Assembly (NCBI RefSeq): GCF_021401085.1
Contig: NZ_JACBFP010000005.1
Span: 1 to 64,000 of the forward strand
DNA: 64,000 nucleotides
Origin: Chryseobacterium sp. R2A-55
GTDB taxonomy: Bacteria > Bacteroidota > Bacteroidia > Flavobacteriales > Weeksellaceae
Direction: 5' to 3'
The translations under genes were made by a program, and so were the position numbers. Shown here in pieces: positions 653-26,178 of this stretch. Numbering within the stretch: the first letter of the stretch is position 1; each line of letters starts with the position of its first letter. The notes under the pieces are model-generated. The model saw only the letters and a program-made list of their open reading frames with translations, was not told the DNA's origin and searched no databases.

Positions 653-2956
653 TTAATGAAATAAACTATCAAACATATTGTCTATCGTTAAGTCGTCATC
701 ATTCCCTATGTGTGGATTTTCTGATGATTCTCTATTCCATTTATAATCATCATCATTGCCCTCGTTTTCTGCTTCATATTTTTTTATTCTATTTTCAATA
801 TCTATTTGTAGATCATAATAATCGACATCGAATTTTTCTCCAAACTTTTTTATATCATACAATACATCTCCTAAATTAGAATCATCAGCATTTGATGATT
901 CTTGGCTCATTATATGTTCAATATTTTCGTAAAAAATATCATTTTGAGTAAATTCTTCATAATCTTTATTACAGAGGTATTCAAATCTTTCAAAATCGTT
1001 TAGTTCTTCAAGAAAATTAATTTTACTAAAAAAGACACTCAGAACTTCTTTAGTATCATAAATTAATTCATTTTGATAATCTTCAAATAAATCCAGATAA
1101 TTACTAAAATCATCATTTTCTAAGTCAGAGGGGATAATGATTTCTTGAAATCTTTTTAGGATAAATTTCCTTAAATCAGTGAGGTCATCTATATAAACAG
1201 AAGAATTAATAGCTTTCAATTTAGAATAGTCAGAAAAGTACTTTTTTACCCATCTTGAACTATATATGCTATAAGAATTGTAAAGTGTTAATGTAGATGA
1301 ATTCAAATAATCGAAGTCAGATTGGAGTTTATTTACAATTAGGCTTTTTTGTGCTTCATCCAGAAAAATTTTATTTTTATTTAATACATCTCCCTTTGAG
1401 TTTTTGATTTCGTAAAAAGCGAAAATTTGAAACAATTGGTTGAAATATATTGCAGAAGAAATTATATCATTAACAAAGTCACTATGTTCTTTTAAATAAT
1501 TGACAAGAAAATCCTGAACCGAAGGATTTTGATATTCAATAGCAATGTTATTAACAGAATCTTTTTTGGATATAATAAATGTATTTTCTAATTCACGTAA
1601 GGATTTTTTAAAATCAAGACTACTATATGTAATGTTATATTTAGAGCTGTAATTTTTCGCGAAATTTTGAATTAATTTTTGTAAATCTTCAATAAGGATT
1701 GGAGTTCCTGCCGACATTAAATTTGCGAGTATACATTGAGACAATGAAGATATTTGATTCTCATATACGTGCTTCCATATGCTTTCAGGATAATCTAAAA
1801 ATTCAATTATTTTAGATGTAAAATCACTTAAGGGGATGTTAGACCAAATATCATATTGAGTAAAAGTTTCTATAATTCGGGGATTATAGTTTTTATGATT
1901 GATTATTTTTAGGTAGGCTTTATTTTTAAGAATGCGATTAATATAATTTTCATTAATATTTGCAAAGAAAAGATGATTATATAAAATTTTTGCCCGTACT
2001 AATTTCGTGTATTGAGAAAGGTCAATTACACATTTAGCAAACTCTAAAGAAGGGTTATTAAAAATATCATATTTCAGCTTTGCTTGAGCCAATACATATT
2101 CTCTGGTTGTAAGAATTAATATTTTATTCTCTGATTTATTGACATTTTCAATAAACCTAATTATCTTCTGCTCCTCATTATTTGAAAGATTTTTATCAAG
2201 AAAATTTCTGCCTAAAAAATCATCAAATAAGAAAATTTGTTTTGTGTTTTCTTTATAAATACTGTATCCTTCGTCTATTGAATCAGATAAGAAAATAAAT
2301 TCTTCAAAGCCATTTGCAAGAAAGTGATAGACGAGAATTCTTGCTAATGTTGTTTTTCCAATTCCCGGAATTCCTGAAATGATTACATATTTTTTATTTT
2401 TCAGAACTTTAATAGCATCATAATAACTATCATTTTCCACATAAAGCTGTACAGTATCTTTTATTTTTTCTTCTTCAAAATTAGTTTGATTATAAATTTT
2501 GCTATTTAATATCCTTTCGAGAATGTTAATGCTTGAAAGCCAGAGTTTAAAATATTGTTTCTCAATGTCAGGATATAGTCCTAAAAGATTATTCATATCA
2601 TCTTTAGAATAAATATCTTCTGAATTTTTGATATAAGGCTCTATTAGATCTAAAATTTTTTGTTTTTGAGACGGAGTAAGCCCTACAGAAGTAGTCAAGA
2701 TATACCTTGATGGATTTAATTTTTCAACTTTTTCCTTTTCTTTAACTAAAGCTTTGAATAGACTCTCAAACGTGCTATATCTTTTACATTGAACTATAAT
2801 ATTTTCGTTTTTATTTGTACTATGTCTGAAATCAATTCCTAAATCTCTTCCATTTGTAAAGGATTCAAAATAAATATTAAGATGTTTTTGTAAAATATCT
2901 CTGCTAATTTCTTCAAACTCAGCGGAAGAAAGATTAAGGAAATTGTAATCGGGCAT
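653..2956 (-). CDS. Mrr-like nuclease fused to a STAND (nSTAND3-type) NTPase, probable antiphage effector
   Basis: 767 residues. The N-terminus is a restriction-endonuclease fold: E14-E16 in AEFEEI, GRDLGIDF around 36-43 and IIVQCKRY around 53-60 give the D...QxK triad of Mrr-like PD-(D/E)xK nucleases. A P-loop NTPase follows: Walker A SGIPGIGKTTLA near 194-205, Walker B IFLFDDF near 241-247 and a sensor ILTTREYVL. The long helical C-terminal third, ending in an acidic tail, is the likely sensor region. This order (nuclease, then STAND ATPase, then sensor) is known from Avs-type and related defence proteins, but the protein is shorter than the classical Avs3/Avs4 and lacks obvious TPR repeats. 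It diverges from the DUF4297-HerA pair. Cleavage and phage sensing are inferred from the architecture. Confidence 0.8.
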   Translation of the reverse strand: MPDYNFLNLSSAEFEEISRDILQKHLNIYFESFTNGRDLGIDFRHSTNKNENIIVQCKRYSTFESLFKALVKEKEKVEKLNPSRYILTTSVGLTPSQKQKILDLIEPYIKNSEDIYSKDDMNNLLGLYPDIEKQYFKLWLSSINILERILNSKIYNQTNFEEEKIKDTVQLYVENDSYYDAIKVLKNKKYVIISGIPGIGKTTLARILVYHFLANGFEEFIFLSDSIDEGYSIYKENTKQIFLFDDFLGRNFLDKNLSNNEEQKIIRFIENVNKSENKILILTTREYVLAQAKLKYDIFNNPSLEFAKCVIDLSQYTKLVRAKILYNHLFFANINENYINRILKNKAYLKIINHKNYNPRIIETFTQYDIWSNIPLSDFTSKIIEFLDYPESIWKHVYENQISSLSQCILANLMSAGTPILIEDLQKLIQNFAKNYSSKYNITYSSLDFKKSLRELENTFIISKKDSVNNIAIEYQNPSVQDFLVNYLKEHSDFVNDIISSAIYFNQLFQIFAFYEIKNSKGDVLNKNKIFLDEAQKSLIVNKLQSDFDYLNSSTLTLYNSYSIYSSRWVKKYFSDYSKLKAINSSVYIDDLTDLRKFILKRFQEIIIPSDLENDDFSNYLDLFEDYQNELIYDTKEVLSVFFSKINFLEELNDFERFEYLCNKDYEEFTQNDIFYENIEHIMSQESSNADDSNLGDVLYDIKKFGEKFDVDYYDLQIDIENRIKKYEAENEGNDDDYKWNRESSENPHIGNDDDLTIDNMFDSLFH

Positions 2957-9058: not shown

Positions 9059-9072
9059 TGTTGTGCATTTAG
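9059..9072 (+). repeat. Left terminal inverted repeat of the IS982-type element
   Basis: TGTTGTGCATTTAG, a perfect complement of the right end. The same bases form the arm of a short hairpin (TTGTGC, 5-base loop, GCACAA) that overlaps the transposase stop codon and may act as its terminator. Confidence 0.7.
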
Positions 9073-9947
9073 CACAAATTAACTTTTAACTTGTTCAAAC
9101 TTCTCTTGAATACGAAAAAATTCAAATATTGAATCATCGTAAAGGAAGTTATTTTCGATACTATTCTTGTCGCCAAACCCTGAAAAGTCTTTGCAAAGTT
9201 GATGTTTATTGTGAACTGTCCGCATAGTTGCGAGATATTCGTTTCAATCCTCTTTCTGATTTTTGATTTCGTTCTTGAAAACCCGACAAAGTTATGCTGA
9301 TTTTTACGCATCGGGACTGATAGATTAATCTTGGAATAGTTGAATAAATCCACTTGGAGCTCTTTGCTAATATATCCTCTGTCTCCGATTAGCAAACAGT
9401 TTTGAAAATTTTCTTTTATGTCGTGAAGGTAGTTCACATCGTGAACATTTGCGGGCGAAAAATCAAAGGAGTGAAAGATTCCATTTTTGTCACAAACGGC
9501 GTGAAGCTTGAAGCCGAAATACCGTGCCTTCTTTGCCGCGCAATATCCAAACGCAGGTTTTATTTCATCTGTCGAACAGATTGCGGAACGATTTGCCCGA
9601 CTCATTTTACAGATTTCAATAGGCGTGGAATCCACAATGAAGACATCGGTGAAATCCGAAAACTTGCTGCTCAAAGTTTCTCTGATTTTTTCAATGTACG
9701 GAAAAAGTTTCCTCCTTCTTTTGTTGTAGACACTTCTTTCAATTTTTCCGTCCAAATCAGTTCCTGAAATGCACCTAAATAGCTGGTGTTCAGAATTAAT
9801 CGACATGTATTCTGCTGTAATATTGAGTGCAACAAGTTCCAGGTCGGAAATTTTCGGACGCCTGATTTGTTTATTTGTGCTAATATGTTTACAGGTTTTT
9901 GCCAATTCTTTTAAAATAATTTTGTAGTTTTGAATGAGATTGTTCAT
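9069..9947 (-). CDS. IS982-family transposase
   Basis: 292 residues, typical for IS982. The DDE core is recognisable: VFIVDSTPIEICK (first Asp), then SRANRSAICSTDEIKP, AKKARYFGFKLHAVCD, the second Asp in LIGDRGYISKEL and the region IRKRIETNISQL that carries the final Glu. The reading frame is uninterrupted. The start is the ATG at 9947, about 90 bases inside the right inverted repeat, where promoter elements must lie. Confidence 0.88.
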   Translation of the reverse strand: MNNLIQNYKIILKELAKTCKHISTNKQIRRPKISDLELVALNITAEYMSINSEHQLFRCISGTDLDGKIERSVYNKRRRKLFPYIEKIRETLSSKFSDFTDVFIVDSTPIEICKMSRANRSAICSTDEIKPAFGYCAAKKARYFGFKLHAVCDKNGIFHSFDFSPANVHDVNYLHDIKENFQNCLLIGDRGYISKELQVDLFNYSKINLSVPMRKNQHNFVGFSRTKSKIRKRIETNISQLCGQFTININFAKTFQGLATRIVSKITSFTMIQYLNFFVFKRSLNKLKVNLC

Positions 9948-10044: not shown

Positions 10045-10962
10045 CTAATCTTTGTTCATCTCCTGGGCAGCAGAAAGAAATTTTAAATATTGTTCTCTCA
10101 CACTTTTCGGTTCCAAAATACGCAATCTTTCCGCATGAGTAAAAAGTTCCTGATAGAAATCGTAGGTAGGAATCAAAGTAATTTCAATCCGATATTCTTT
10201 TTTGTTGTCAACCAGTGTTTTTTGTGAATGATGTATAGGTAGGGATTTGACGAATTGTCCTTGCCATGCATCAAAAGAAAGAACCATTTTTTTTGGTTTT
10301 TCTCCCGAAGTAATAATTCCAAATGAATTGACAAACATCTTTTCTATATCAACTTCTGTTTTTTTGAAAGATTTCTTATGGATCTCCAGATCGGTCAAAC
10401 GGTCTAAACCATAGGTTTTGATGAAGAAACCTTCTTGATTACTTTCATTTGCTAACAAATACCAACGATTTCGGAATTCCTTTAATGCATAAGGCTCCAC
10501 AATTCTTTTTTGTGAAATTCCCTCATCATATTTGGTGTACTTAAAACTGATGAGCTTGGAATGTTTTATGGCATGAATAATTCCTTCCAAATTATGCAAA
10601 CCCGATGCCTGACGTTTTTCAAAAAACATGATTTTGGATTGATCCGCGGTTTTTTTATAGGCATTAACCAGCAATAAATTGTCGAAAATGCCTTTGGATT
10701 GCTCCAGATTTTCATCATCTGCAATTTGGTAAGTCATGGTTGAACGTTTAAATTTGGTTTCAATTCCGAAAAGATCAAAAAGCAAATTCCGATCCCGCTT
10801 GAAGGTTTTTTCGCTGAAAGCCAAGTCAGTGTCATAACCATCAATATGATGTTTTTCTTCTAAATATCTAAGGATTTCATGATAAGTTGCACCTTCATTT
10901 CCTCTTGTTTGAAGCAGATTTGAAATATGAATCAAACGCAGCATCTGGTCTCTTTTTGCCAT
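10045..10962 (-). CDS. WYL-domain transcriptional regulator
   Basis: 305 residues. An N-terminal winged helix (about 1-80; EILRYLEEKHHI ... FSEKTFKRDRNLLFDLFG) is followed by a WYL domain (about 130-210: ISFKYTKYDEG, RIVEPYALKEFRNRWYLLANE) and a C-terminal WCX-like extension. WYL regulators bind nucleic-acid or nucleotide ligands and often control defence operons (for example CapW and BrxR), though they also serve general roles. It lies downstream of the AAA+ gene cluster on the same strand but has its own promoter, which suits a repressor of that cluster. The regulatory target is inferred from position only. Confidence 0.85.
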   Translation of the reverse strand: MAKRDQMLRLIHISNLLQTRGNEGATYHEILRYLEEKHHIDGYDTDLAFSEKTFKRDRNLLFDLFGIETKFKRSTMTYQIADDENLEQSKGIFDNLLLVNAYKKTADQSKIMFFEKRQASGLHNLEGIIHAIKHSKLISFKYTKYDEGISQKRIVEPYALKEFRNRWYLLANESNQEGFFIKTYGLDRLTDLEIHKKSFKKTEVDIEKMFVNSFGIITSGEKPKKMVLSFDAWQGQFVKSLPIHHSQKTLVDNKKEYRIEITLIPTYDFYQELFTHAERLRILEPKSVREQYLKFLSAAQEMNKD

Positions 10963-10981
10963 TTCCCGGAATCTTATTGTA

Positions 10982-10989
10982 CAAATATA
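10982..10989 (-). promoter_or_regulatory. -7 box of the WYL regulator gene
   Basis: TATATTTG on the minus strand, a perfect Bacteroidota -7 element, 20 bases before the ATG. It shows that the regulator can be transcribed independently of the upstream AAA+ cluster. Confidence 0.5.
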
Positions 10990-11169
10990 TGGAAGTAAAC
11001 AGACAATTAAAGTCTATTAAATGTAAGAAATATAAAAATCTACAGAATATTTTTATTCTTTGTTTTGATGATGGATGGATTCCCACAATTCAATTGATCA
11101 AGCCTATTTTGATCACGTTCTTTTCTGGATATCATCTATAAATTTGCTTCGGATGTTTTTGTACAAAAT

Positions 11170-11349
11170 TCATTTTTTAAATATTTCTAAAAAATTCATT
11201 TTAAAAATAGTCAAATACTGGTCATTAAGAAAAGAGTTTACTAAATTTTCACAGACGCCTTTTTTCCCTGACCATTGGTATTTTTGGAAAGAATTGACGA
11301 CGGAGAAATTAACCCCAACGGACAATAGAAGTCGTTTTACCTTACTCAT
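11170..11349 (-). CDS. Small hypothetical ORF at the end of the AAA+ gene cluster
   Basis: 59 codons from the ATG at 11347-11349 to TGA at 11170-11172, beginning 8 bases after the stop of the 176-residue gene and on the same strand. The product is basic, begins MSKVKRLLLSVGVNFS and ends LEIFKK. No domain or signal peptide is recognised. Tight spacing to the upstream gene is the main support; no comparative evidence is available. Between its end and the WYL gene lie about 200 bases without features. Confidence 0.4.
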   Translation of the reverse strand: MSKVKRLLLSVGVNFSVVNSFQKYQWSGKKGVCENLVNSFLNDQYLTIFKMNFLEIFKK

Positions 11350-11357
11350 TTTAATTT

Positions 11358-11888
11358 TTACAAGTTTCTGATTTTTTCTATGAATTCTTCAGTCAATTCA
11401 AATCGAAAATTATTTAAGAAAATTTGTGCGCAATGTTCTTCTAAATCAAAATATTGCATTGCACGAAGATCCAATTTCTTAATCGATTCTATGAAGCCAA
11501 AATGCCGTGGAAAGATTTTCAGAATATTTCTTTGTTCGAGTGACCTAATTTCTTCAGTCATTTGCAATAAATCAAAATCATCCAAATATAGATTTGCCAA
11601 AACTCTTTCAGGAGATATAAAATAGGTGTTAATATCACTGTACTCATAGTATTCCATTAAGACTCCGTATGAGACAAGCGCGGAATCCTCGGAAATTCCC
11701 AATAATTTCGAAAGGTATCTTATCTCAGTTGAAAGATGCTTTTTCAATTCTGTCTTACCGTTTTTCTCTATTTTCATTGTAATTTCCTCCGTTCCAGGCT
11801 GAAGTTTGAATCTTCCAAATTCCTTCAGTTTTTGATCTGCTTTCAGCAGCATTTCATAAAATTGTCGGTAGTTTTCGGTCATCATCAA
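11358..11888 (-). CDS. Unknown helical protein, paralogue of its upstream neighbour
   Basis: 176 residues, all-helical in appearance, no known family. A central stretch (EIRYLSKLLGISEDSALVSY ... EEIRSLEQRNILKIF) aligns with the upstream 177-residue protein (ELQWLSKYFSISKRAGFVLY ... LEEKNIIVI) and with residues 35-100 of the AAA+ protein (DLENLSNYLGLTELQSLIFA ... LFERKLLKKE). Both small proteins end alike (FELTEEFIEKIRNL against FEFTESFIHKLNHF). The start offers three consecutive ATGs; the first overlaps the upstream stop by 4 bases (ATGA), implying translational coupling. It probably pairs with its paralogue or docks on the ATPase; function unknown. Confidence 0.75.
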   Translation of the reverse strand: MMMTENYRQFYEMLLKADQKLKEFGRFKLQPGTEEITMKIEKNGKTELKKHLSTEIRYLSKLLGISEDSALVSYGVLMEYYEYSDINTYFISPERVLANLYLDDFDLLQMTEEIRSLEQRNILKIFPRHFGFIESIKKLDLRAMQYFDLEEHCAQIFLNNFRFELTEEFIEKIRNL

Positions 11889-12418
11889 AAGTGATTTAGT
11901 TTATGAATAAATGACTCAGTGAATTCAAACTTCTTATTTGCAAAAGGAACGAAAGAGGGTTTCACTTTTACCAAATAATATTTGTGCTCAAAAGTATCTG
12001 ATGCATTAATCACCGGAACTAAATAATGCTCAACTTCAGTAATTACGATGATGTTCTTTTCTTCCAGCTCGAAAATTGCTTCCCGCAAATCCAGAACCGT
12101 GGCATCATAAATATCGACAAAAATATTTTTTTTAATATCTGAAATACTGATGTAATTTGATTTGATTACACCACTTTGCAAATAGATTCTCAGAAGCGAA
12201 TAAAGAACGAATCCCGCCCTCTTTGAAATTGAAAAATATTTCGATAACCATTGAAGCTCTTCATCCAAGATGTTTTCAAGTTTATTTAATGAATCAATTC
12301 GGCTATCCCAATATTCCTCATAATCTTCAATCGCAAAGAAAAATTCCCTGTCTTTTCTCAAAATTTTGAGTTCAATTCTTGTAATTAGGTCAAACAGCTG
12401 TTCAAGATTAGTTGTCAT
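11885..12418 (-). CDS. Unknown helical protein, paralogue of its downstream neighbour
   Basis: 177 residues when started at the ATG at 12416-12418 (MTTNLEQLF...). A longer frame reaches 12490, but that would overlap the AAA+ gene by about 60 bases and read its C-terminal codons out of frame, so I prefer the shorter form, which leaves a 10-base gap. Similar in length and in its central LSKYF.IS module to the 176-residue downstream protein. No catalytic motif, membrane segment or signal peptide is visible. It belongs to a compact minus-strand cluster with the AAA+ gene. Confidence 0.75.
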   Translation of the reverse strand: MTTNLEQLFDLITRIELKILRKDREFFFAIEDYEEYWDSRIDSLNKLENILDEELQWLSKYFSISKRAGFVLYSLLRIYLQSGVIKSNYISISDIKKNIFVDIYDATVLDLREAIFELEEKNIIVITEVEHYLVPVINASDTFEHKYYLVKVKPSFVPFANKKFEFTESFIHKLNHF

Positions 12419-12428
12419 ATCAATTATT

Positions 12429-14081
12429 TTAAAACCCAATTTTCTTTGCTTCAGTTTTTTCCGTCCATTTCTCACTTCGGCACATTCCATCTACTGAATC
12501 AAAAGTCGGTTTCTCACCATTTATGATCTCATTCATCAAAGATTTTCTCGCAATATTTTCCATTTCTCCGCCTGTAAACTCAAAACTTTCGGCAAGCTTC
12601 AAACATTCATTTTTAGATAAAAACGGCAGCTTACTTTTCCAAATTTTTGCGGAATTGTCCATGTTTGGTTTTTCCAGTCTCACTTTAAACAGGAATCTTC
12701 TTTCGAAAGCAGAATCCATGTTTTCAACCAAATTTGTTGTGGCGAAAAGGATTCCGTCAAACATCTCCAATTCTTCAAGTAAAATATTCTGAATTGCATT
12801 TTCAGTGTCAGCAACTCTTGAGCTTCCTGCAGATTTTCTTTTTCCAATCACCGCATCCGCTTCGTTGAATAAGAGAATCGGACACTTCTTTTCGGTTTTT
12901 TTAAATTCCTCGTAATTGGTGAAAATTCTTTTTACCAACTTCTGACTTTCGCCAAACCACATGCTTTTCGTCTCTGAAATATCGACTTTGAAAATATTTC
13001 TTCCACTTTCTTTTGCAATTTGATAAACGCTTTCGGTTTTTCCAGTTCCCGGATCTCCGTGGAGAAGTACTGTAATTCCCAATGGCATTGCTTTTTCTTT
13101 TAGTACGGACTGAAGTTCTTTGAATTTATTTTCTTCCACAGCATTCTTAATAATTTGAATTTGCGGAATTTCGCTGTCATTATAAAAAAGGTCTTTTTTC
13201 TGAATATTCTTTTGCAGGAGAAGTCTGTTGTTTTCATCATCAAAATATTCAAGTTCCACTTTTTCATGCTCTTTCAGAAATTCTATCACGTGTTTGGACA
13301 GCTTTGCTTCGGTTTGATTTCTGAATTTTTCTTTGGAGAACTCAACCAGATTTAAAGTTGTTAATTTCGTGTGTCCATCCAGTAGAAATTTAAACAGTCG
13401 AATTGATTCTGACCTGCGTTTGTCAAAATCTTCCACGGTTCTGTGAACAGATGTGTTGAAGTTATTATCTCCTCTGCGAATGGCATCCCACAAGGTGTCA
13501 AGAAAAAAATAAGTCTCAAAATCATTCAGTTTCCAATTCTTGATTTGCTTAACCATGGGCAAATTTTCGTTATCATTCAGCAACTCGCCGGTGCGATGTA
13601 TAAATTCGTGTTTGGCAATCTTGTCGTCATCGAAGCGATCACTGAGCGCGTCAAATTCCTCCAGGATATCGGTTAATAAAACTGAATCTTTTTTTTCTTC
13701 AGCAATTTTGATATTCCCGGAAATCGCACTGATCACGGAATTTTCAATCTTAAAATCCATCCGATTTTCATCGAAACGTCGCTCCTTTTTCAAGAGTTTT
13801 CTTTCGAACAACACATTGACATCTTTCCTGTAGCGAATAATCGAATATTCCGCCATTCCAAAATGTCTGAACACCCGAATAACTTGAGCATCGTCGTAAC
13901 CCAAAATAAAACAATTGGCAAATATCAAACTTTGCAATTCGGTCAGTCCCAAATAATTTGAAAGATTTTCCAGATCTGTTTTCAGTAACTCGAAAAGTGG
14001 GTCACGCAAATGCGAATCTTCAGAGTGTTTGTAGATTCTTTCGATACAATCCAAAACATTGAAATTTACTTTTGTTTCCAT
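12429..14081 (-). CDS. AAA+ ATPase of an unrecognised gene cluster
   Basis: 550 residues. A helical N-terminal region of about 330 residues precedes a classical AAA+ module (Cdc48/FtsH-like): Walker A HGDPGTGKTE at about 341-350, Walker B PILLFNEADA at about 401-410, sensor 1 ATTN near 447-450, arginine fingers FERRF near 459-463, then a lid with ENIARKSL. The Walker B reads NEAD where many relatives have DEAD/DEID, but the Glu is kept. N-terminal residues 35-100 resemble the two small proteins encoded next, so these may be adaptors built from the same module. No protease or nuclease domain is attached. Substrate remodelling or unfolding is the likely activity; the biological role is unknown. 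Confidence 0.8.
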   Translation of the reverse strand: METKVNFNVLDCIERIYKHSEDSHLRDPLFELLKTDLENLSNYLGLTELQSLIFANCFILGYDDAQVIRVFRHFGMAEYSIIRYRKDVNVLFERKLLKKERRFDENRMDFKIENSVISAISGNIKIAEEKKDSVLLTDILEEFDALSDRFDDDKIAKHEFIHRTGELLNDNENLPMVKQIKNWKLNDFETYFFLDTLWDAIRRGDNNFNTSVHRTVEDFDKRRSESIRLFKFLLDGHTKLTTLNLVEFSKEKFRNQTEAKLSKHVIEFLKEHEKVELEYFDDENNRLLLQKNIQKKDLFYNDSEIPQIQIIKNAVEENKFKELQSVLKEKAMPLGITVLLHGDPGTGKTESVYQIAKESGRNIFKVDISETKSMWFGESQKLVKRIFTNYEEFKKTEKKCPILLFNEADAVIGKRKSAGSSRVADTENAIQNILLEELEMFDGILFATTNLVENMDSAFERRFLFKVRLEKPNMDNSAKIWKSKLPFLSKNECLKLAESFEFTGGEMENIARKSLMNEIINGEKPTFDSVDGMCRSEKWTEKTEAKKIGF

Positions 14082-20863: not shown

Positions 20864-23800
20864 ATGAAAACAATACTCGGTTTAGACCTTGGAACAAATT
20901 CGATTGGCTGGGCATTAATCAAACAAAATTTTGAAACGAAACAAGGCAGAATTCTTGGAATCGGAAGTAGGATAATTCCCATGACACAGGATGTGATGGA
21001 TAATTTTGGCTCAGGAACTCCGTCCAAAACACAAACTTCTGCAAGAACGGATTATCGAAGTGTGCGAAGATTACGAGAAAGAAATCTTCTGAGAAGAGAG
21101 CGTTTGCATAGACTATTAAATATTTTAGATTTTCTTCCCGATCATTACTCAAATAAAATTGATTTCGAAAATAGATTAGGCAAATTCCTACCTGGAACCG
21201 AACCTAAATTAGTTTATGATGATAATCATCAATTTATTTTTAAAAATTCTTTCGAAGAGATGCTCAAAGAATTTCAGAGAGAGCATCCAGAATTGCTTTC
21301 TAGCAGCAAGAAAATTCCTTATGACTGGACCATTTATTATTTAAGAAAAAAAGCACTTTCGCAAAAAATTCAAAAAGAAGAACTCGCATGGATTATTCTT
21401 AATTTTAATCAGAAGCGCGGCTATTACCAACTCCGCGGTGAAGAGGAAGAAGAAAATCCAAATAAACTTGTTGAGTTTTTCTCCTTAGAAATTGTTGATG
21501 TAATTGCTGATGAACAAAGAAAGGGTACTGATAAGATATGGTATAGTATTATTTTAGAAAATGGGTGGATTTACAGAAGAGAAAGTAAATACCCATTATT
21601 CGACTGGAAAAACAAAGTGCGTGACTTTATTGTAACTACTGATTTGAATGAAGATGGTAGTATAAAAACTGACAAAGAAGGCAAAGAGAAAAGAAGTTTC
21701 CGGGCACCAAATGAAGATGATTGGACATTGTTGAAGAAAAAAACAGAAAACGAAATTGATAATTCTCAAAAAACAGTTGGGGAATATATTTATGATGCAT
21801 TATTGGATAATCCTTCACAGAAAATTAAAGGTAAATTGGTAAGAACCATAGAGCGAAAATTCTATAAAGAAGAAATTACAAAGATTTTAAAAAAGCAAAC
21901 CGAGTTTCATGCTGAACTGAAAGAAAGGAATCTTTTAAATTCCTGTGTCGACGAACTGTACCCAAGGAATGAAGAACGGCAAAAGTTGCTGAAAACTAAA
22001 GATTTCGTTTACCTATTCATAGAGGATATTCTTTTTTATCAAAGACCACTCAAAAGTCAAAAACATAATATTGGCGATTGTAAATTAGAATACAGGGAAT
22101 ACGCGAAAAATGGGGTGAAAATAAAAGATCATTTAAAAACAATTTCCCGTTCTCACCCACTATTTCAGGAGTTCAGGATATGGCAGTGGATCCAGAATTT
22201 GAAAATTTATGATAAACTTTCTGATGAGGAGGTTACCTTTAACTTTTTATCATCTATAGATGATTATGACCAACTTTTTGATTTCTTGTGGAACAGAAAA
22301 GAAGTAGATCATAAAGCACTTTTAGAATATTTGATAAAAAGGAAATATGAAGATTTAAAGCCGAAGCAAATTTCTACAAAAGCCAAAGAGTACCGGTGGA
22401 ATTATGTTTACGACAGCGAGAAGGATGAATCTAAATTTTATCCAATGGGTGAAACGAATGCGATGATTAAGAACCGTTTGGAGAAAATTGAGCAATTGCC
22501 CGGTGAATTTTTGACTTCGGAAATTTTGGAAAAACTGTGGCACATCATCTATTCGGTAACTGATAAAATTGAATATGAAAAAGCACTCAACACGTTTGCA
22601 AAAAAAAATGATATTGATGCCGAACAATTTGTAGAGAACTTCAAAAAATTCCCACCCTTCAAAAGTGATTATTCTTCGTATTCTTTAAAAGCAATCAAAA
22701 AACTTCTGCCTCTGATGAGAATGGGAAAATATTGGAAAGAAGAAAATATTGATGCCGAAACCCAAAGAAGGTTGACATCTATAAAAGAGCGTATTGAAAG
22801 TATTAATTACGAAGAAAAGAAACTGCAAGAAATTTCGGACGATGACATTTTGAAGCCAGTTTTAAAAAGTTTTATGAAATTTAAAAATCGTTCATTCAAC
22901 CAGGGATTGAACACTTATCAGGCAAGTTATGCGGTTTATAATAAACACTCCGAAGGTGATGCAACGAAATGGAATTCGGTTGAAGATTTAGAAAAATATT
23001 TGGATGAATTTAAACAACATTCTTTGCGGAATCCAATTGTTGAACAGCTGGTCACCGAAACACTGCGTGTAGTACGTGATATTTGGAAGGATTATGGTAA
23101 TGGTGACAAAGATTTCTTTAATGAAATTCATATTGAACTGGGAAGGGATTTGAGAAATTCTGCAGATGAACGCAAGAGAATTTCGGCAAATCATACCAAG
23201 AATGAAAATACCAATTTAAGAATCAAACTTTTGCTCACGGAATTGTTGAATGAAGGCGTAGAAAATGTTCGCCCGTTTTCACCGATGCAACAGGAAATTC
23301 TGAAGATTTATGAAGAAGGCGCTTTAAGTTCTGAAACTGAAATTCCCGATGAAATTCTGAAAATATCTGTTACCGCACAACCTACGACTTCGCAGCTCCA
23401 ACGATATAAACTGTGGCTGGAACAGAAATATAAATCGCCATATACAGGGCAAATGATTCCTTTAAGTAAACTCTTCACAACAGAATATGAAATTGAACAT
23501 ATCATTCCGCAAAGTAGATTTTTTGACGATGGTTTTTCAAACAAAGTTATCTGTGAAAGTGCTGTAAATAAGCGGAAAGATAATCAGTTGGGTTTAGAGT
23601 TTATCAAGAATTGTGGTGGTGAAATAGTAGAATTAGATTTTGGTAAAAAAGTGCCGATTCTTAATGAAAATGATTATCGGGATTTCATCGACCTCCATTA
23701 TTCAAAAAACAGAGCAAAGAAAGCCAAATTACTTTTGGAAGAAGTTCCTGAAAAAATGATTGAAAGGCAATTAAATGATACCCGCTATATCAGCAAATTG

Positions 23801-25285
23801 GTGATGCAACTGTTATCCAATATTGTAAGAAGTGAAGATGGAAAAGATGATGGTGTAAATTCCAAAAATGTATTACCGGTAACTGGAAAAATAACCTCTG
23901 AACTAAAAAATGACTGGGGTTTAAATGATATTTGGAATGATTTGATTTTACCGCGGTTTATCAGGTTAAACGAAATGACGAACTCAAATGATTTTACAAC
24001 TTATAACGAAAAGTATCAGAAAGTTTTGCCAACAGTACCACTGCATTTGGAAAAAGGTTTTCAGAAAAAAAGAATAGATCACCGCCACCATTCTCTGGAT
24101 GCTTTGGTTATTGCCTGCACCACCAGAAATCATATCAATTATCTCAATAATCAAAGTGCTCTAGACGATAGTTACAAAAAGAAATTTTATACGCAAGAAG
24201 AGTACAGGGAAAAATTTCAGAAAGCAAGGGAAGACTTAAGGAGGGATTTATGTGATAAAAATTTCAATTCTGATAATCCTAAAAATTATAAATGGACATT
24301 CAAGAAACCTTGGCAAAATTTCACCAAAGATGCAAAAGACAGGTTAGAAACAACAATTATCAGTTTCAAGCAAAACCAAAGAATTATCAACAAGACTGTA
24401 AATTATTATCAAAAGTATAATGATGAAGGTAAAAAGGTCTTTGTAAAGCAAACAAAGGGTGATAATTGGGCTATACGAAAATCGTTACACAAAGAAACCG
24501 TATCTGCAAAAGTTGATTTACCAAGAATTAAAGTTCCAAGAGGCAAAATTCTTACAGCAACACGGAAATTGATAGATATATCATTTACTTTAAAAACAAT
24601 TGAGAGTATAACCGATACCGGCATTCAGAAGATTCTCAAAAATTATTTAGAATATAAAGAATACAATTCTGAGTTAGCATTCTCACCGGAAGGTATTGAA
24701 GAAATGAACCAAAATATTGAGAAATATAATGATGGAGTAGCACATAAACCAATTTTCAAAGTAAGAATTTTTGAAACAGGCAGTAAATTTCCCTTGGGTG
24801 AAACGGGGAATAAGACCGAAAAATATGTAGAAGCCGCAAAAGGAACGAACTTATTTTTTGGAATTTATATAGATGAGGAGGGCAAAAGAGTTTTCGATAC
24901 GATTGCTTTTAACATTGTTGTGGAACGCTTAAAACAAGGATTGAGTGCAGTTCCTGAAACAAACGAGAAAGGCAATGATCTTCTATATTCATTATCACCA
25001 CAAGACTTGGTGTATGTTCCAACTGAAGAGGAAAGAGTTAATACTGCATTAGTGAACTTTGAAGATTTGACTAAAGAGCAAATTAGCAGGATTTACAAAA
25101 TGGTGAGTTCTTCGGGAACTCAATGCTTTTTTGTGAAATCAGAAGTGGCAAGCTCTATTGCTAATAAGTTTGAATTTACTTCTTTAAATAAGATGGAAAA
25201 TACTATTGATGGTAAGCAAGTGAAATCCATATGTTGGAAATTAGAAACTACTCGTCTAGGAAGAATCATTAAAGTTATAAGGTAA
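20864..25285 (+). CDS. cas9: Cas9 endonuclease, type II-C
   Basis: 1473 residues, in the size range of Bacteroidota II-C Cas9. RuvC-I is KTILGLDLGTNSIGWAL (D8); the arginine-rich bridge helix is DYRSVRRLRERNLLRRERL; RuvC-II has E758 in NEIHIELGRD; HNH has EIEHIIPQSRFFDDGFSNKV with H879 and a following N-K-R region; RuvC-III is DHRHHSLDAL with H1076 and D1079. All catalytic residues are present, so a cutting enzyme is expected. The final 350 residues form the wedge/PAM-interacting part. Its stop overlaps the cas1 start by one base (TAATG). No csn2 or cas4 is present, hence subtype II-C. Confidence 0.97.
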   Translation: MKTILGLDLGTNSIGWALIKQNFETKQGRILGIGSRIIPMTQDVMDNFGSGTPSKTQTSARTDYRSVRRLRERNLLRRERLHRLLNILDFLPDHYSNKIDFENRLGKFLPGTEPKLVYDDNHQFIFKNSFEEMLKEFQREHPELLSSSKKIPYDWTIYYLRKKALSQKIQKEELAWIILNFNQKRGYYQLRGEEEEENPNKLVEFFSLEIVDVIADEQRKGTDKIWYSIILENGWIYRRESKYPLFDWKNKVRDFIVTTDLNEDGSIKTDKEGKEKRSFRAPNEDDWTLLKKKTENEIDNSQKTVGEYIYDALLDNPSQKIKGKLVRTIERKFYKEEITKILKKQTEFHAELKERNLLNSCVDELYPRNEERQKLLKTKDFVYLFIEDILFYQRPLKSQKHNIGDCKLEYREYAKNGVKIKDHLKTISRSHPLFQEFRIWQWIQNLKIYDKLSDEEVTFNFLSSIDDYDQLFDFLWNRKEVDHKALLEYLIKRKYEDLKPKQISTKAKEYRWNYVYDSEKDESKFYPMGETNAMIKNRLEKIEQLPGEFLTSEILEKLWHIIYSVTDKIEYEKALNTFAKKNDIDAEQFVENFKKFPPFKSDYSSYSLKAIKKLLPLMRMGKYWKEENIDAETQRRLTSIKERIESINYEEKKLQEISDDDILKPVLKSFMKFKNRSFNQGLNTYQASYAVYNKHSEGDATKWNSVEDLEKYLDEFKQHSLRNPIVEQLVTETLRVVRDIWKDYGNGDKDFFNEIHIELGRDLRNSADERKRISANHTKNENTNLRIKLLLTELLNEGVENVRPFSPMQQEILKIYEEGALSSETEIPDEILKISVTAQPTTSQLQRYKLWLEQKYKSPYTGQMIPLSKLFTTEYEIEHIIPQSRFFDDGFSNKVICESAVNKRKDNQLGLEFIKNCGGEIVELDFGKKVPILNENDYRDFIDLHYSKNRAKKAKLLLEEVPEKMIERQLNDTRYISKLVMQLLSNIVRSEDGKDDGVNSKNVLPVTGKITSELKNDWGLNDIWNDLILPRFIRLNEMTNSNDFTTYNEKYQKVLPTVPLHLEKGFQKKRIDHRHHSLDALVIACTTRNHINYLNNQSALDDSYKKKFYTQEEYREKFQKAREDLRRDLCDKNFNSDNPKNYKWTFKKPWQNFTKDAKDRLETTIISFKQNQRIINKTVNYYQKYNDEGKKVFVKQTKGDNWAIRKSLHKETVSAKVDLPRIKVPRGKILTATRKLIDISFTLKTIESITDTGIQKILKNYLEYKEYNSELAFSPEGIEEMNQNIEKYNDGVAHKPIFKVRIFETGSKFPLGETGNKTEKYVEAAKGTNLFFGIYIDEEGKRVFDTIAFNIVVERLKQGLSAVPETNEKGNDLLYSLSPQDLVYVPTEEERVNTALVNFEDLTKEQISRIYKMVSSSGTQCFFVKSEVASSIANKFEFTSLNKMENTIDGKQVKSICWKLETTRLGRIIKVIR

Positions 25286-26178
25286 TGCTCTTCCGTTCCA
25301 TCTACATCGGCAATCCCGCCTATCTGAAACTGAAAGACAACCAAATGTATATTTTGGAGCCGGAGACCAATGAAGTGAAGGGAAAGGTTCCGGTAGAAGA
25401 TTTGGGCTTACTGATGCTCGATCATTTTCAAATAACGATTTCGCATCAGCTGATCCAAAAAATGATGGGGAATAATGTGGTGGTCATCAGTTGCGATGCT
25501 TTCCATCTTCCACACGGAATCATGCTTCCCATGTTTGGACACACTGAGCATTCGCAGCGTTTGAAGGACCAGCTGGAAGCAAGTGAACCTTTGAAGAAGC
25601 AGCTTTGGAAACAGACGGTGGAGTGTAAGATTGAAAATCAGAAAGAAGTACTGATCCGGCTCGGAAATTATTATGAACCGATGAACGAATATCTGCGAAA
25701 TGTGAAAAGCGGCGACAGTACCAATATGGAGGGAATCGCAGCGCAACATTACTGGAAGTACCTGATTTCATTGGATTTCCTGCGTGAACGTTTTGGGGAA
25801 TCGCCCAACCAGTTTTTCAATTTCGGATATTCAGTTTTGCGGAGCATTGTCGCCAGATCTTTGGTGGAGACTGGATTGCTTCCTGTTTTGGGGATTTTCC
25901 ACAAGAATAAATACAATCCCTATTGTTTGGCGGATGACCTCATGGAACCCTACCGTCCATTTGTTGATTTTATGGTGATGGAATGGCTGAAAGTTTATCC
26001 GGAATCTGAAGAATTGACCAGGGAATTTAAGGCCTATGTTTTACAGATTGCCACAAAGGATCTGAAAATAGATGGATTGACAAGACCCTTGATGGTGGCG
26101 GTGAAAGCCACGGCCAGTTCACTTTATAAATGTTATACCGGCGAAAAGAGACTGCTCTCTTATCCCGAATTTATATAA
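25285..26178 (+). CDS. cas1: Cas1 integrase, type II
   Basis: 297 residues. The type II Cas1 start MLFRSIYIGNPAYLKLKDNQ and the block NMEGIAAQHYWKYL with the catalytic Glu are visible, as are the later metal-site His (VLGIFHKNKYNPYCLADDLM) and Asp/Glu region (MEPYRPFVDFMVMEW). It inserts new spacers together with Cas2. Translationally coupled to cas9 by a one-base overlap; cas2 follows after 35 bases. Confidence 0.95.
   Translation: MLFRSIYIGNPAYLKLKDNQMYILEPETNEVKGKVPVEDLGLLMLDHFQITISHQLIQKMMGNNVVVISCDAFHLPHGIMLPMFGHTEHSQRLKDQLEASEPLKKQLWKQTVECKIENQKEVLIRLGNYYEPMNEYLRNVKSGDSTNMEGIAAQHYWKYLISLDFLRERFGESPNQFFNFGYSVLRSIVARSLVETGLLPVLGIFHKNKYNPYCLADDLMEPYRPFVDFMVMEWLKVYPESEELTREFKAYVLQIATKDLKIDGLTRPLMVAVKATASSLYKCYTGEKRLLSYPEFI

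What the first reader, a model, noticed from the sequence alone, without database searches (positions are those of the whole stretch)
10045..14081. Unrecognised AAA+ gene cluster with two module-sharing small proteins and a WYL regulator
Seen: an AAA+ ATPase (550 residues), two consecutive proteins of 177 and 176 residues and a 59-codon ORF lie head to tail with gaps of 10, -4 and 8 bases; a WYL regulator with its own promoter follows. The two small proteins share the central LSK..(S/G)IS module with each other and with residues 35-100 of the ATPase, and both end F.(F/L)TE.FI.K(L/I). Known: WYL proteins often repress defence operons, and the cluster sits in a defence island beside HipBA, HerA-DUF4297 and a STAND nuclease. 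Inference: an ATPase with paralogous adaptors built from its own N-terminal domain, possibly a new defence or stress system. I cannot match it to a named system.
Basis: partly seen in the sequence, partly recalled or inferred. Interest (0 to 1): 0.72.

Follow-up and report, generated by a model that had tools for sequence, protein, structure and literature searches.

The report
AAA ATPase with free-standing docking modules
A bacterial gene cluster joins a likely protein-unfolding machine, two small proteins that look like loose copies of its front end, and a switch gene of a kind often found beside anti-virus genes; the machine is a widespread, little-studied family, but the full combination is rare.

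Summary
The genes are there and the shared module is real. P2 and P3 are paralogues. Both match the ATPase N-terminus at profile level: a MarR-like winged helix with an acidic recognition helix. The ATPase is a classical Vps4/p97-like AAA protein with an intact pore loop. In 82 of 82 full-length relatives the Walker B has NE in place of DE, and 81 of 82 carry [IVLM]G[FY] near the C-terminus. It is widespread in Bacteroidota and Treponema. A WYL gene lies on the same strand within five genes at 38 of 93 loci, a GmrSD-like nuclease at 14. The three-gene unit is not conserved: among 93 ATPase loci only the window has module proteins beside the ATPase. Six of 320 family genomes carry module proteins, and in five of them no intact family ATPase was found. 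There the module leads nuclease operons ending in the same WYL type (one runs off its contig). One distant ATPase carries two module copies in cis. Best reading: a WYL-linked unfoldase of a defence cassette, with P2 and P3 as free copies of its docking module acting as adaptors. Defence function is inferred. Relatives on large viral contigs, one beside replication genes, caution against a purely defensive role.

The parts
12429..14081 (-). classical AAA ATPase, 550 aa; N-terminal helical/winged-helix part (about 1-320), AAA domain (about 336-520), C-terminal IGF
13698..14081 (-). MarR-like winged-helix module, ATPase residues 1-128, the part shared with P2 and P3
11885..12418 (-). P2, 177 aa, single-module protein; net charge -7, recognition-helix segment -5
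11358..11885 (-). P3, 175 aa from ATG (176 from TTG at 11888), single-module protein; AlphaFold2 pLDDT 84.4, pTM 0.79
11170..11349 (-). 59-codon ORF, no recognisable relative; may not be a gene
10045..10962 (-). WYL-domain regulator, 305 aa, same type as those beside ATPase relatives (up to 68% identity) and beside module proteins (59%)

Best explanation
The cluster is a WYL-linked cassette built round a hexameric Vps4/p97-like unfoldase. The AAA ring (shown: Walker A, pore loop S-M-W-F-G-E-S, sensor and arginine-finger residues all conserved; hexamer inferred) probably threads or disassembles a protein target. The N-terminal winged-helix part (MarR-like fold from the model of P3, acidic recognition helix in P2 and P3) probably docks proteins rather than DNA (inferred). 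P2 and P3 are free copies of that docking module (homology shown). They probably pair with each other or with the ATPase N-terminus and bring it a particular client, acting as adaptors (inferred). The WYL protein probably represses the cassette until infection or DNA damage (inferred from CapW and BrxR). The client is unknown; in relatives the neighbours are GmrSD-like, type I or PD-(D/E)XK nucleases, so a nuclease or an invader's complex is the likeliest target.
For: Module homology. Fold of P3: winged helix, pLDDT 84.4; the top structural matches are largely MarR-type and other winged-helix proteins, Z at most 6.7. Active-site conservation in 82 aligned relatives. WYL on the same strand within five genes at 38 of 93 loci; 22 WYL genes lie within 1 kb downstream on the same strand (86 loci hold that stretch in full), against 1 same-strand and 2 opposite-strand in 257 locus-kilobases at 4-9 kb downstream. 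GmrSD-like 14, DEDDh exonuclease 12, HsdR 7, PDDEXK_4 5 of 93. An extra module copy in cis in one 704-aa relative (L062/L175), next to WYL and nuclease genes. The same WYL type ends the module-protein operons that lack an ATPase.
Against: The ATPase with module proteins beside it is seen once in 93 loci, so no conserved partnership shows an adaptor role. Module proteins live without an intact ATPase in five of six genomes. The window operon has no nuclease of its own. About half of the ATPase loci (50 of 93) have neither WYL nor nuclease on the same strand within five genes. Relatives occur on large viral contigs, one beside DnaB- and DnaC-like genes, so the family is not only defensive. P2 against the ATPase N-terminus is not significant pairwise. 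The recognition helix of the window ATPase itself is about neutral (+1); only P2 and P3 are strongly acidic.
Confidence: 0.4

Rival explanations
1. P2 and P3 are unrelated in function to the ATPase. They are leading genes of a different WYL-ended nuclease cassette (as in G087, G101, G123, G156) whose nucleases were lost, left beside an ATPase-WYL pair by recombination at a shared island site.
For: In the five other genomes the module protein leads a nuclease operon, ended by WYL where the contig reaches that far, with no ATPase. G123 and G156 share flanking genes but differ in cargo.
Against: Gaps of 10 and -1/-4 bases put P2 and P3 in one apparent operon with the ATPase. Homology to that very ATPase would be a coincidence. 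Both frames are intact.
Confidence: 0.3
2. The ATPase is a general protein-remodelling or replication-linked AAA protein carried by mobile elements and large phages; its presence in islands is hitch-hiking.
For: Twelve viral-contig loci encode relatives; the 11 with a readable gene carry [IV]GF near the C-terminus and keep the NE form of Walker B, and one sits beside DnaB- and DnaC-like genes.
Against: Strong same-strand link to WYL across Bacteroidota; recurrent order exonuclease - GmrSD-like - GmrSD-like - ATPase in six loci (L039, L051, L055, L056, L060, L061; small extra ORFs in L056 and L060).
Confidence: 0.17
3. P2 and P3 are ordinary MarR-like transcription regulators of the cluster.
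For: MarR-like fold; a profile of the module also hits short proteins that look like MarR regulators (by eye) in G784, G813 and G659.
Against: Recognition-helix segments carry net charge -5 (P2) and -4 (P3), whole proteins -7 and -6, poor for DNA binding; the cluster already has a WYL regulator.
Confidence: 0.08

Closest known systems
Classical AAA unfoldases (Vps4, p97/Cdc48, FtsH, proteasomal ATPases)
   Same: AAA domain, aromatic pore loop, sensor and arginine-finger residues
   Different: Walker B is NE in place of DE in 82 of 82; the N-terminal part matches no Pfam family above its cut-off; conserved C-terminal [IVLM]G[FY]
IetA of the IetAS defence system
   Same: best named bacterial match of the AAA domain (NCBIfam 69.4 bits, PADLOC 71.4 bits)
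   Different: far below the NCBIfam cut-off of 510; AAA domain only; no subtilase among the genes scanned around it
CapW and BrxR WYL regulators
   Same: WYL regulator in defence islands; [quoted passage not shown]
   Different: here it lies at the 3' end of the operon; repression untested; WCX below cut-off
SpoVK-type AAA ATPases in extended type III-A CoCoNuT operons
   Same: p97-like AAA ATPase built into a type IV restriction cassette (PMC11090510, passages read)
   Different: no VWA or McrBC-type genes here; no winged-helix adaptors mentioned in the passages read

Membership tests
Classical AAA unfoldase | Walker A GxxxxGK[T/S] | tested here: met
   GDPGTGKT; the G, G, G, K, T columns invariant in 82 of 82
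Classical AAA unfoldase | Walker B ending DE | tested here: not met
   N-E in 82 of 82; the catalytic E is kept
Classical AAA unfoldase | aromatic pore loop 1 and arginine residues of the second region of homology | tested here: met
   W375 in 81 of 82, R461 and R462 in 82 of 82
Classical AAA unfoldase | hexamer with ATP-driven unfolding | not testable with these tools
   needs biochemistry
IetAS system | IetA at equivalog level | tested here: not met
   69.4 bits against a cut-off of 510
IetAS system | adjacent subtilase IetS | tested here: not met
   no subtilase among the Pfam-scanned genes of the cluster and its neighbours
CapW/BrxR WYL regulators | WYL domain | tested here: met
   48.9 bits, cut-off 21.8
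CapW/BrxR WYL regulators | WCX domain | tested here: inconclusive
   20.6 bits, cut-off 23.9
CapW/BrxR WYL regulators | repression of the operon, released on infection | not testable with these tools
   needs reporter assays
MarR-like winged-helix proteins (P2, P3) | winged-helix fold | tested here: met
   AlphaFold2 model of P3, pLDDT 84.4; largely winged-helix structural matches, Z at most 6.7, below the range where Z alone is convincing
MarR-like winged-helix proteins (P2, P3) | basic recognition helix for DNA | tested here: not met
   net -5 and -4
GmrSD/type IV or type I restriction cassette | nuclease gene in the operon | tested here: not met
   none between 10045 and 14081 in the window; present in relatives

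The most novel reading that the evidence does not exclude
A WYL-controlled unfoldase immunity module in which free-standing winged-helix proteins act as exchangeable adaptors that choose the unfoldase's client; the same module can be fused in cis (extra copy in L062), supplied in trans (P2, P3), or used without the ATPase to lead nuclease operons.
Probability: 0.2. Interest if true: 0.75.

Novelty: new variant of a known kind. Interest (0 to 1): 0.45.

Why it matters
A Vps4/p97-like unfoldase family tied to WYL regulators and nuclease operons across Bacteroidota is not named as a defence component in the family libraries scanned, and the paper searches made listed none that I recognised as describing it. 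If it is one, it would add protein unfolding with swappable adaptors to the tools of bacterial immunity, and the conserved NE Walker B and C-terminal [IVLM]G[FY] give direct mutational tests.

Tried and rejected
A conserved ATPase-P2-P3 trio: rejected. P2 on plasmids: no match. Module proteins in solved structures by sequence: no match up to E 1. ATPase as IetA: rejected on score and on the missing subtilase. A tandem second copy of the module in ATPase residues 136-325: similar order of helices in the model, but profile comparison is weak (P 0.027), so left open. Possible single-module proteins in other families (G784, G813, G659) turned out to look like MarR regulators in unrelated surroundings. 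Promoter scans gave nothing above chance. Foldseek with the ATPase model listed AAA proteins, with poor superposition (rmsd above 13), so nothing was learnt about its N-terminal part. Foldseek with the P3 model had no match below E 0.001; the winged-helix reading rests and on the model itself. Papers: search listings only; passages only of PMC11237479, PMC7159879, PMC9122601, PMC11090510 and PMC9122588. ClpX IGF-loop and HbYX analogies for the C-terminal motif are recalled, not tested.

Rows dropped before counts: four loci that duplicate family genomes (L048, L049, L050, L063) were left out of the 93; 82 of the 93 have an ATPase frame of 500-620 aa and were used for motif counts. The 80 loci are the best of at least 576 relatives, so they lean towards the window's subfamily. 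The profile used was built partly from the module proteins of G087 and G123, which it therefore finds by construction.

Full report
What is there. Five reading frames follow one another on the minus strand: ATPase (550 aa), P2 (177), P3 (175 or 176), a 59-codon ORF and a WYL regulator (305 aa). P3 starts on TTG (overlap 4 bases) or, more likely, on ATG (overlap 1 base). The 59-codon ORF has no relative in the loci held and may not be a gene.

The shared module. P2 and P3 are clearly homologous (score 160 against 36 +/- 6 in shuffles). Both match the ATPase N-terminus by profile: hhalign E 2.9e-7 over 93 columns; a profile of ATPase N-termini finds P2 at 5.3e-5 and P3 at 7.2e-5, and a related short protein of two other genomes at 6e-13 and 3e-12. 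The model of P3 is a winged helix with a long N-terminal helical extension (pLDDT 84.4, pTM 0.79); the structural matches are largely MarR-type and other winged-helix proteins, with Z up to 6.7, which by itself is modest. The recognition-helix segment of P2 and P3 is acidic (-5 and -4), so protein docking is likelier than DNA binding. In the ATPases it is mildly acidic on average (mean -1.4 in 82), and about neutral in the window's own ATPase (+1).

The ATPase. Its AAA domain is of the classical kind (best solved relatives VCP-like ATPases, with Vps4 in the list). In 82 full-length relatives the Walker A lysine, the pore-loop tryptophan (81 of 82), the catalytic glutamate and both arginines are kept; the Walker B aspartate is asparagine in all 82; 81 of 82 carry [IVLM]G[FY] in the last 30 residues, against 17 of 501 other long ORFs of the same loci. 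In the family it is found in 18 of 197 genomes at E 1e-30 or better, counting the own genome, one 84-residue fragment (G085), one match to the AAA domain only (G193) and one split frame (G030).

Neighbourhoods. Over 93 non-redundant ATPase loci, a WYL gene of one cluster lies within five genes at 46, on the same strand at 38. Within 1 kb downstream on the same strand there are 22, against 1 same-strand and 2 opposite-strand in 257 locus-kilobases at 4-9 kb downstream. GmrSD-like genes occur at 14, DEDDh exonuclease at 12, HsdR at 7 and PDDEXK_4 at 5; any of these nucleases at 27; WYL or nuclease at 43; neither at 50 (domains). A recurrent order is zinc-ribbon protein - exonuclease - GmrSD-like - GmrSD-like - ATPase - WYL (L039, L056, L060, L061, with small extra ORFs in some; without the zinc-ribbon protein L055; with WYL in front L051). 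The same series is on a Chryseobacterium balustinum plasmid, where the ATPase frame is split.

Module proteins elsewhere. A profile of the small proteins finds them in 6 of 320 family genomes. In the five other genomes no intact family ATPase was found; G123 has a broken N-terminal fragment, and G087 and G100 have only weak AAA-domain matches. There the module protein leads a nuclease operon, ended by the same WYL type in four of five; the fifth runs off its contig. In G087 the P2-like gene is broken. G123 and G156 share flanking genes but carry different nuclease cargo, as expected of an island hot spot. In a distant relative (L062, refetched as L175) the ATPase has two copies of the module in one chain (1-134 and 147-280) and overlaps its WYL gene by a base.

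Mechanism. Shown: homology, fold type, intact AAA core, WYL and nuclease association. Inferred: unfoldase action, docking role of the module, adaptor role of P2 and P3, control by WYL, and defence. The chief weakness is that the trio is seen once. The chief warning is that relatives with the same NE Walker B and, in the 11 readable genes, the same C-terminal motif lie on viral contigs, one beside DnaB- and DnaC-like genes.

Verdict. A real but rare combination on top of a widespread ATPase family that is linked to WYL and nucleases and that I could not match to a named system (paper searches).

Noticed in passing
window 20864-26178: A type II CRISPR locus: Cas9 (1473 aa) and Cas1, in the same window as the cluster; not mentioned in the finding.
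   Followed up: no
window 653-2956: The 'STAND nuclease' of the finding is an nSTAND3 protein (PADLOC PDC-S73) whose first 160 residues match TIR-type Argonaute-associated models (Aga_TIR), so its effector may be a TIR domain rather than a nuclease.
   Followed up: no
L039, L051, L055, L056, L060, L061; plasmid locus L141: Recurrent operon with DEDDh exonuclease, two GmrSD-like proteins, the AAA ATPase and WYL (often a zinc-ribbon protein too) across Bacteroidota: a candidate defence system in its own right.
   Followed up: partly
L028, L029, L030, L031, L032, L033, L039 and others: A protein of about 77 residues with two repeats resembling single BNR/Asp-box units (by eye) often follows the ATPase (cluster at 9 of 93 loci).
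   Followed up: no
window 9069-9947: A DDE transposase gene lies 97 bases from the 3' end of the WYL gene, a possible agent of rearrangement.
   Followed up: no
L144-L155: Viral contigs (up to 339 kb) encode members of the ATPase family, in L152 beside DnaB- and DnaC-like genes.
   Followed up: partly
L040 6998-8694, L027 7001-8482, L141 8001-9673: The ATPase frame is split or shortened in several relatives, which hints at frequent loss.
   Followed up: no
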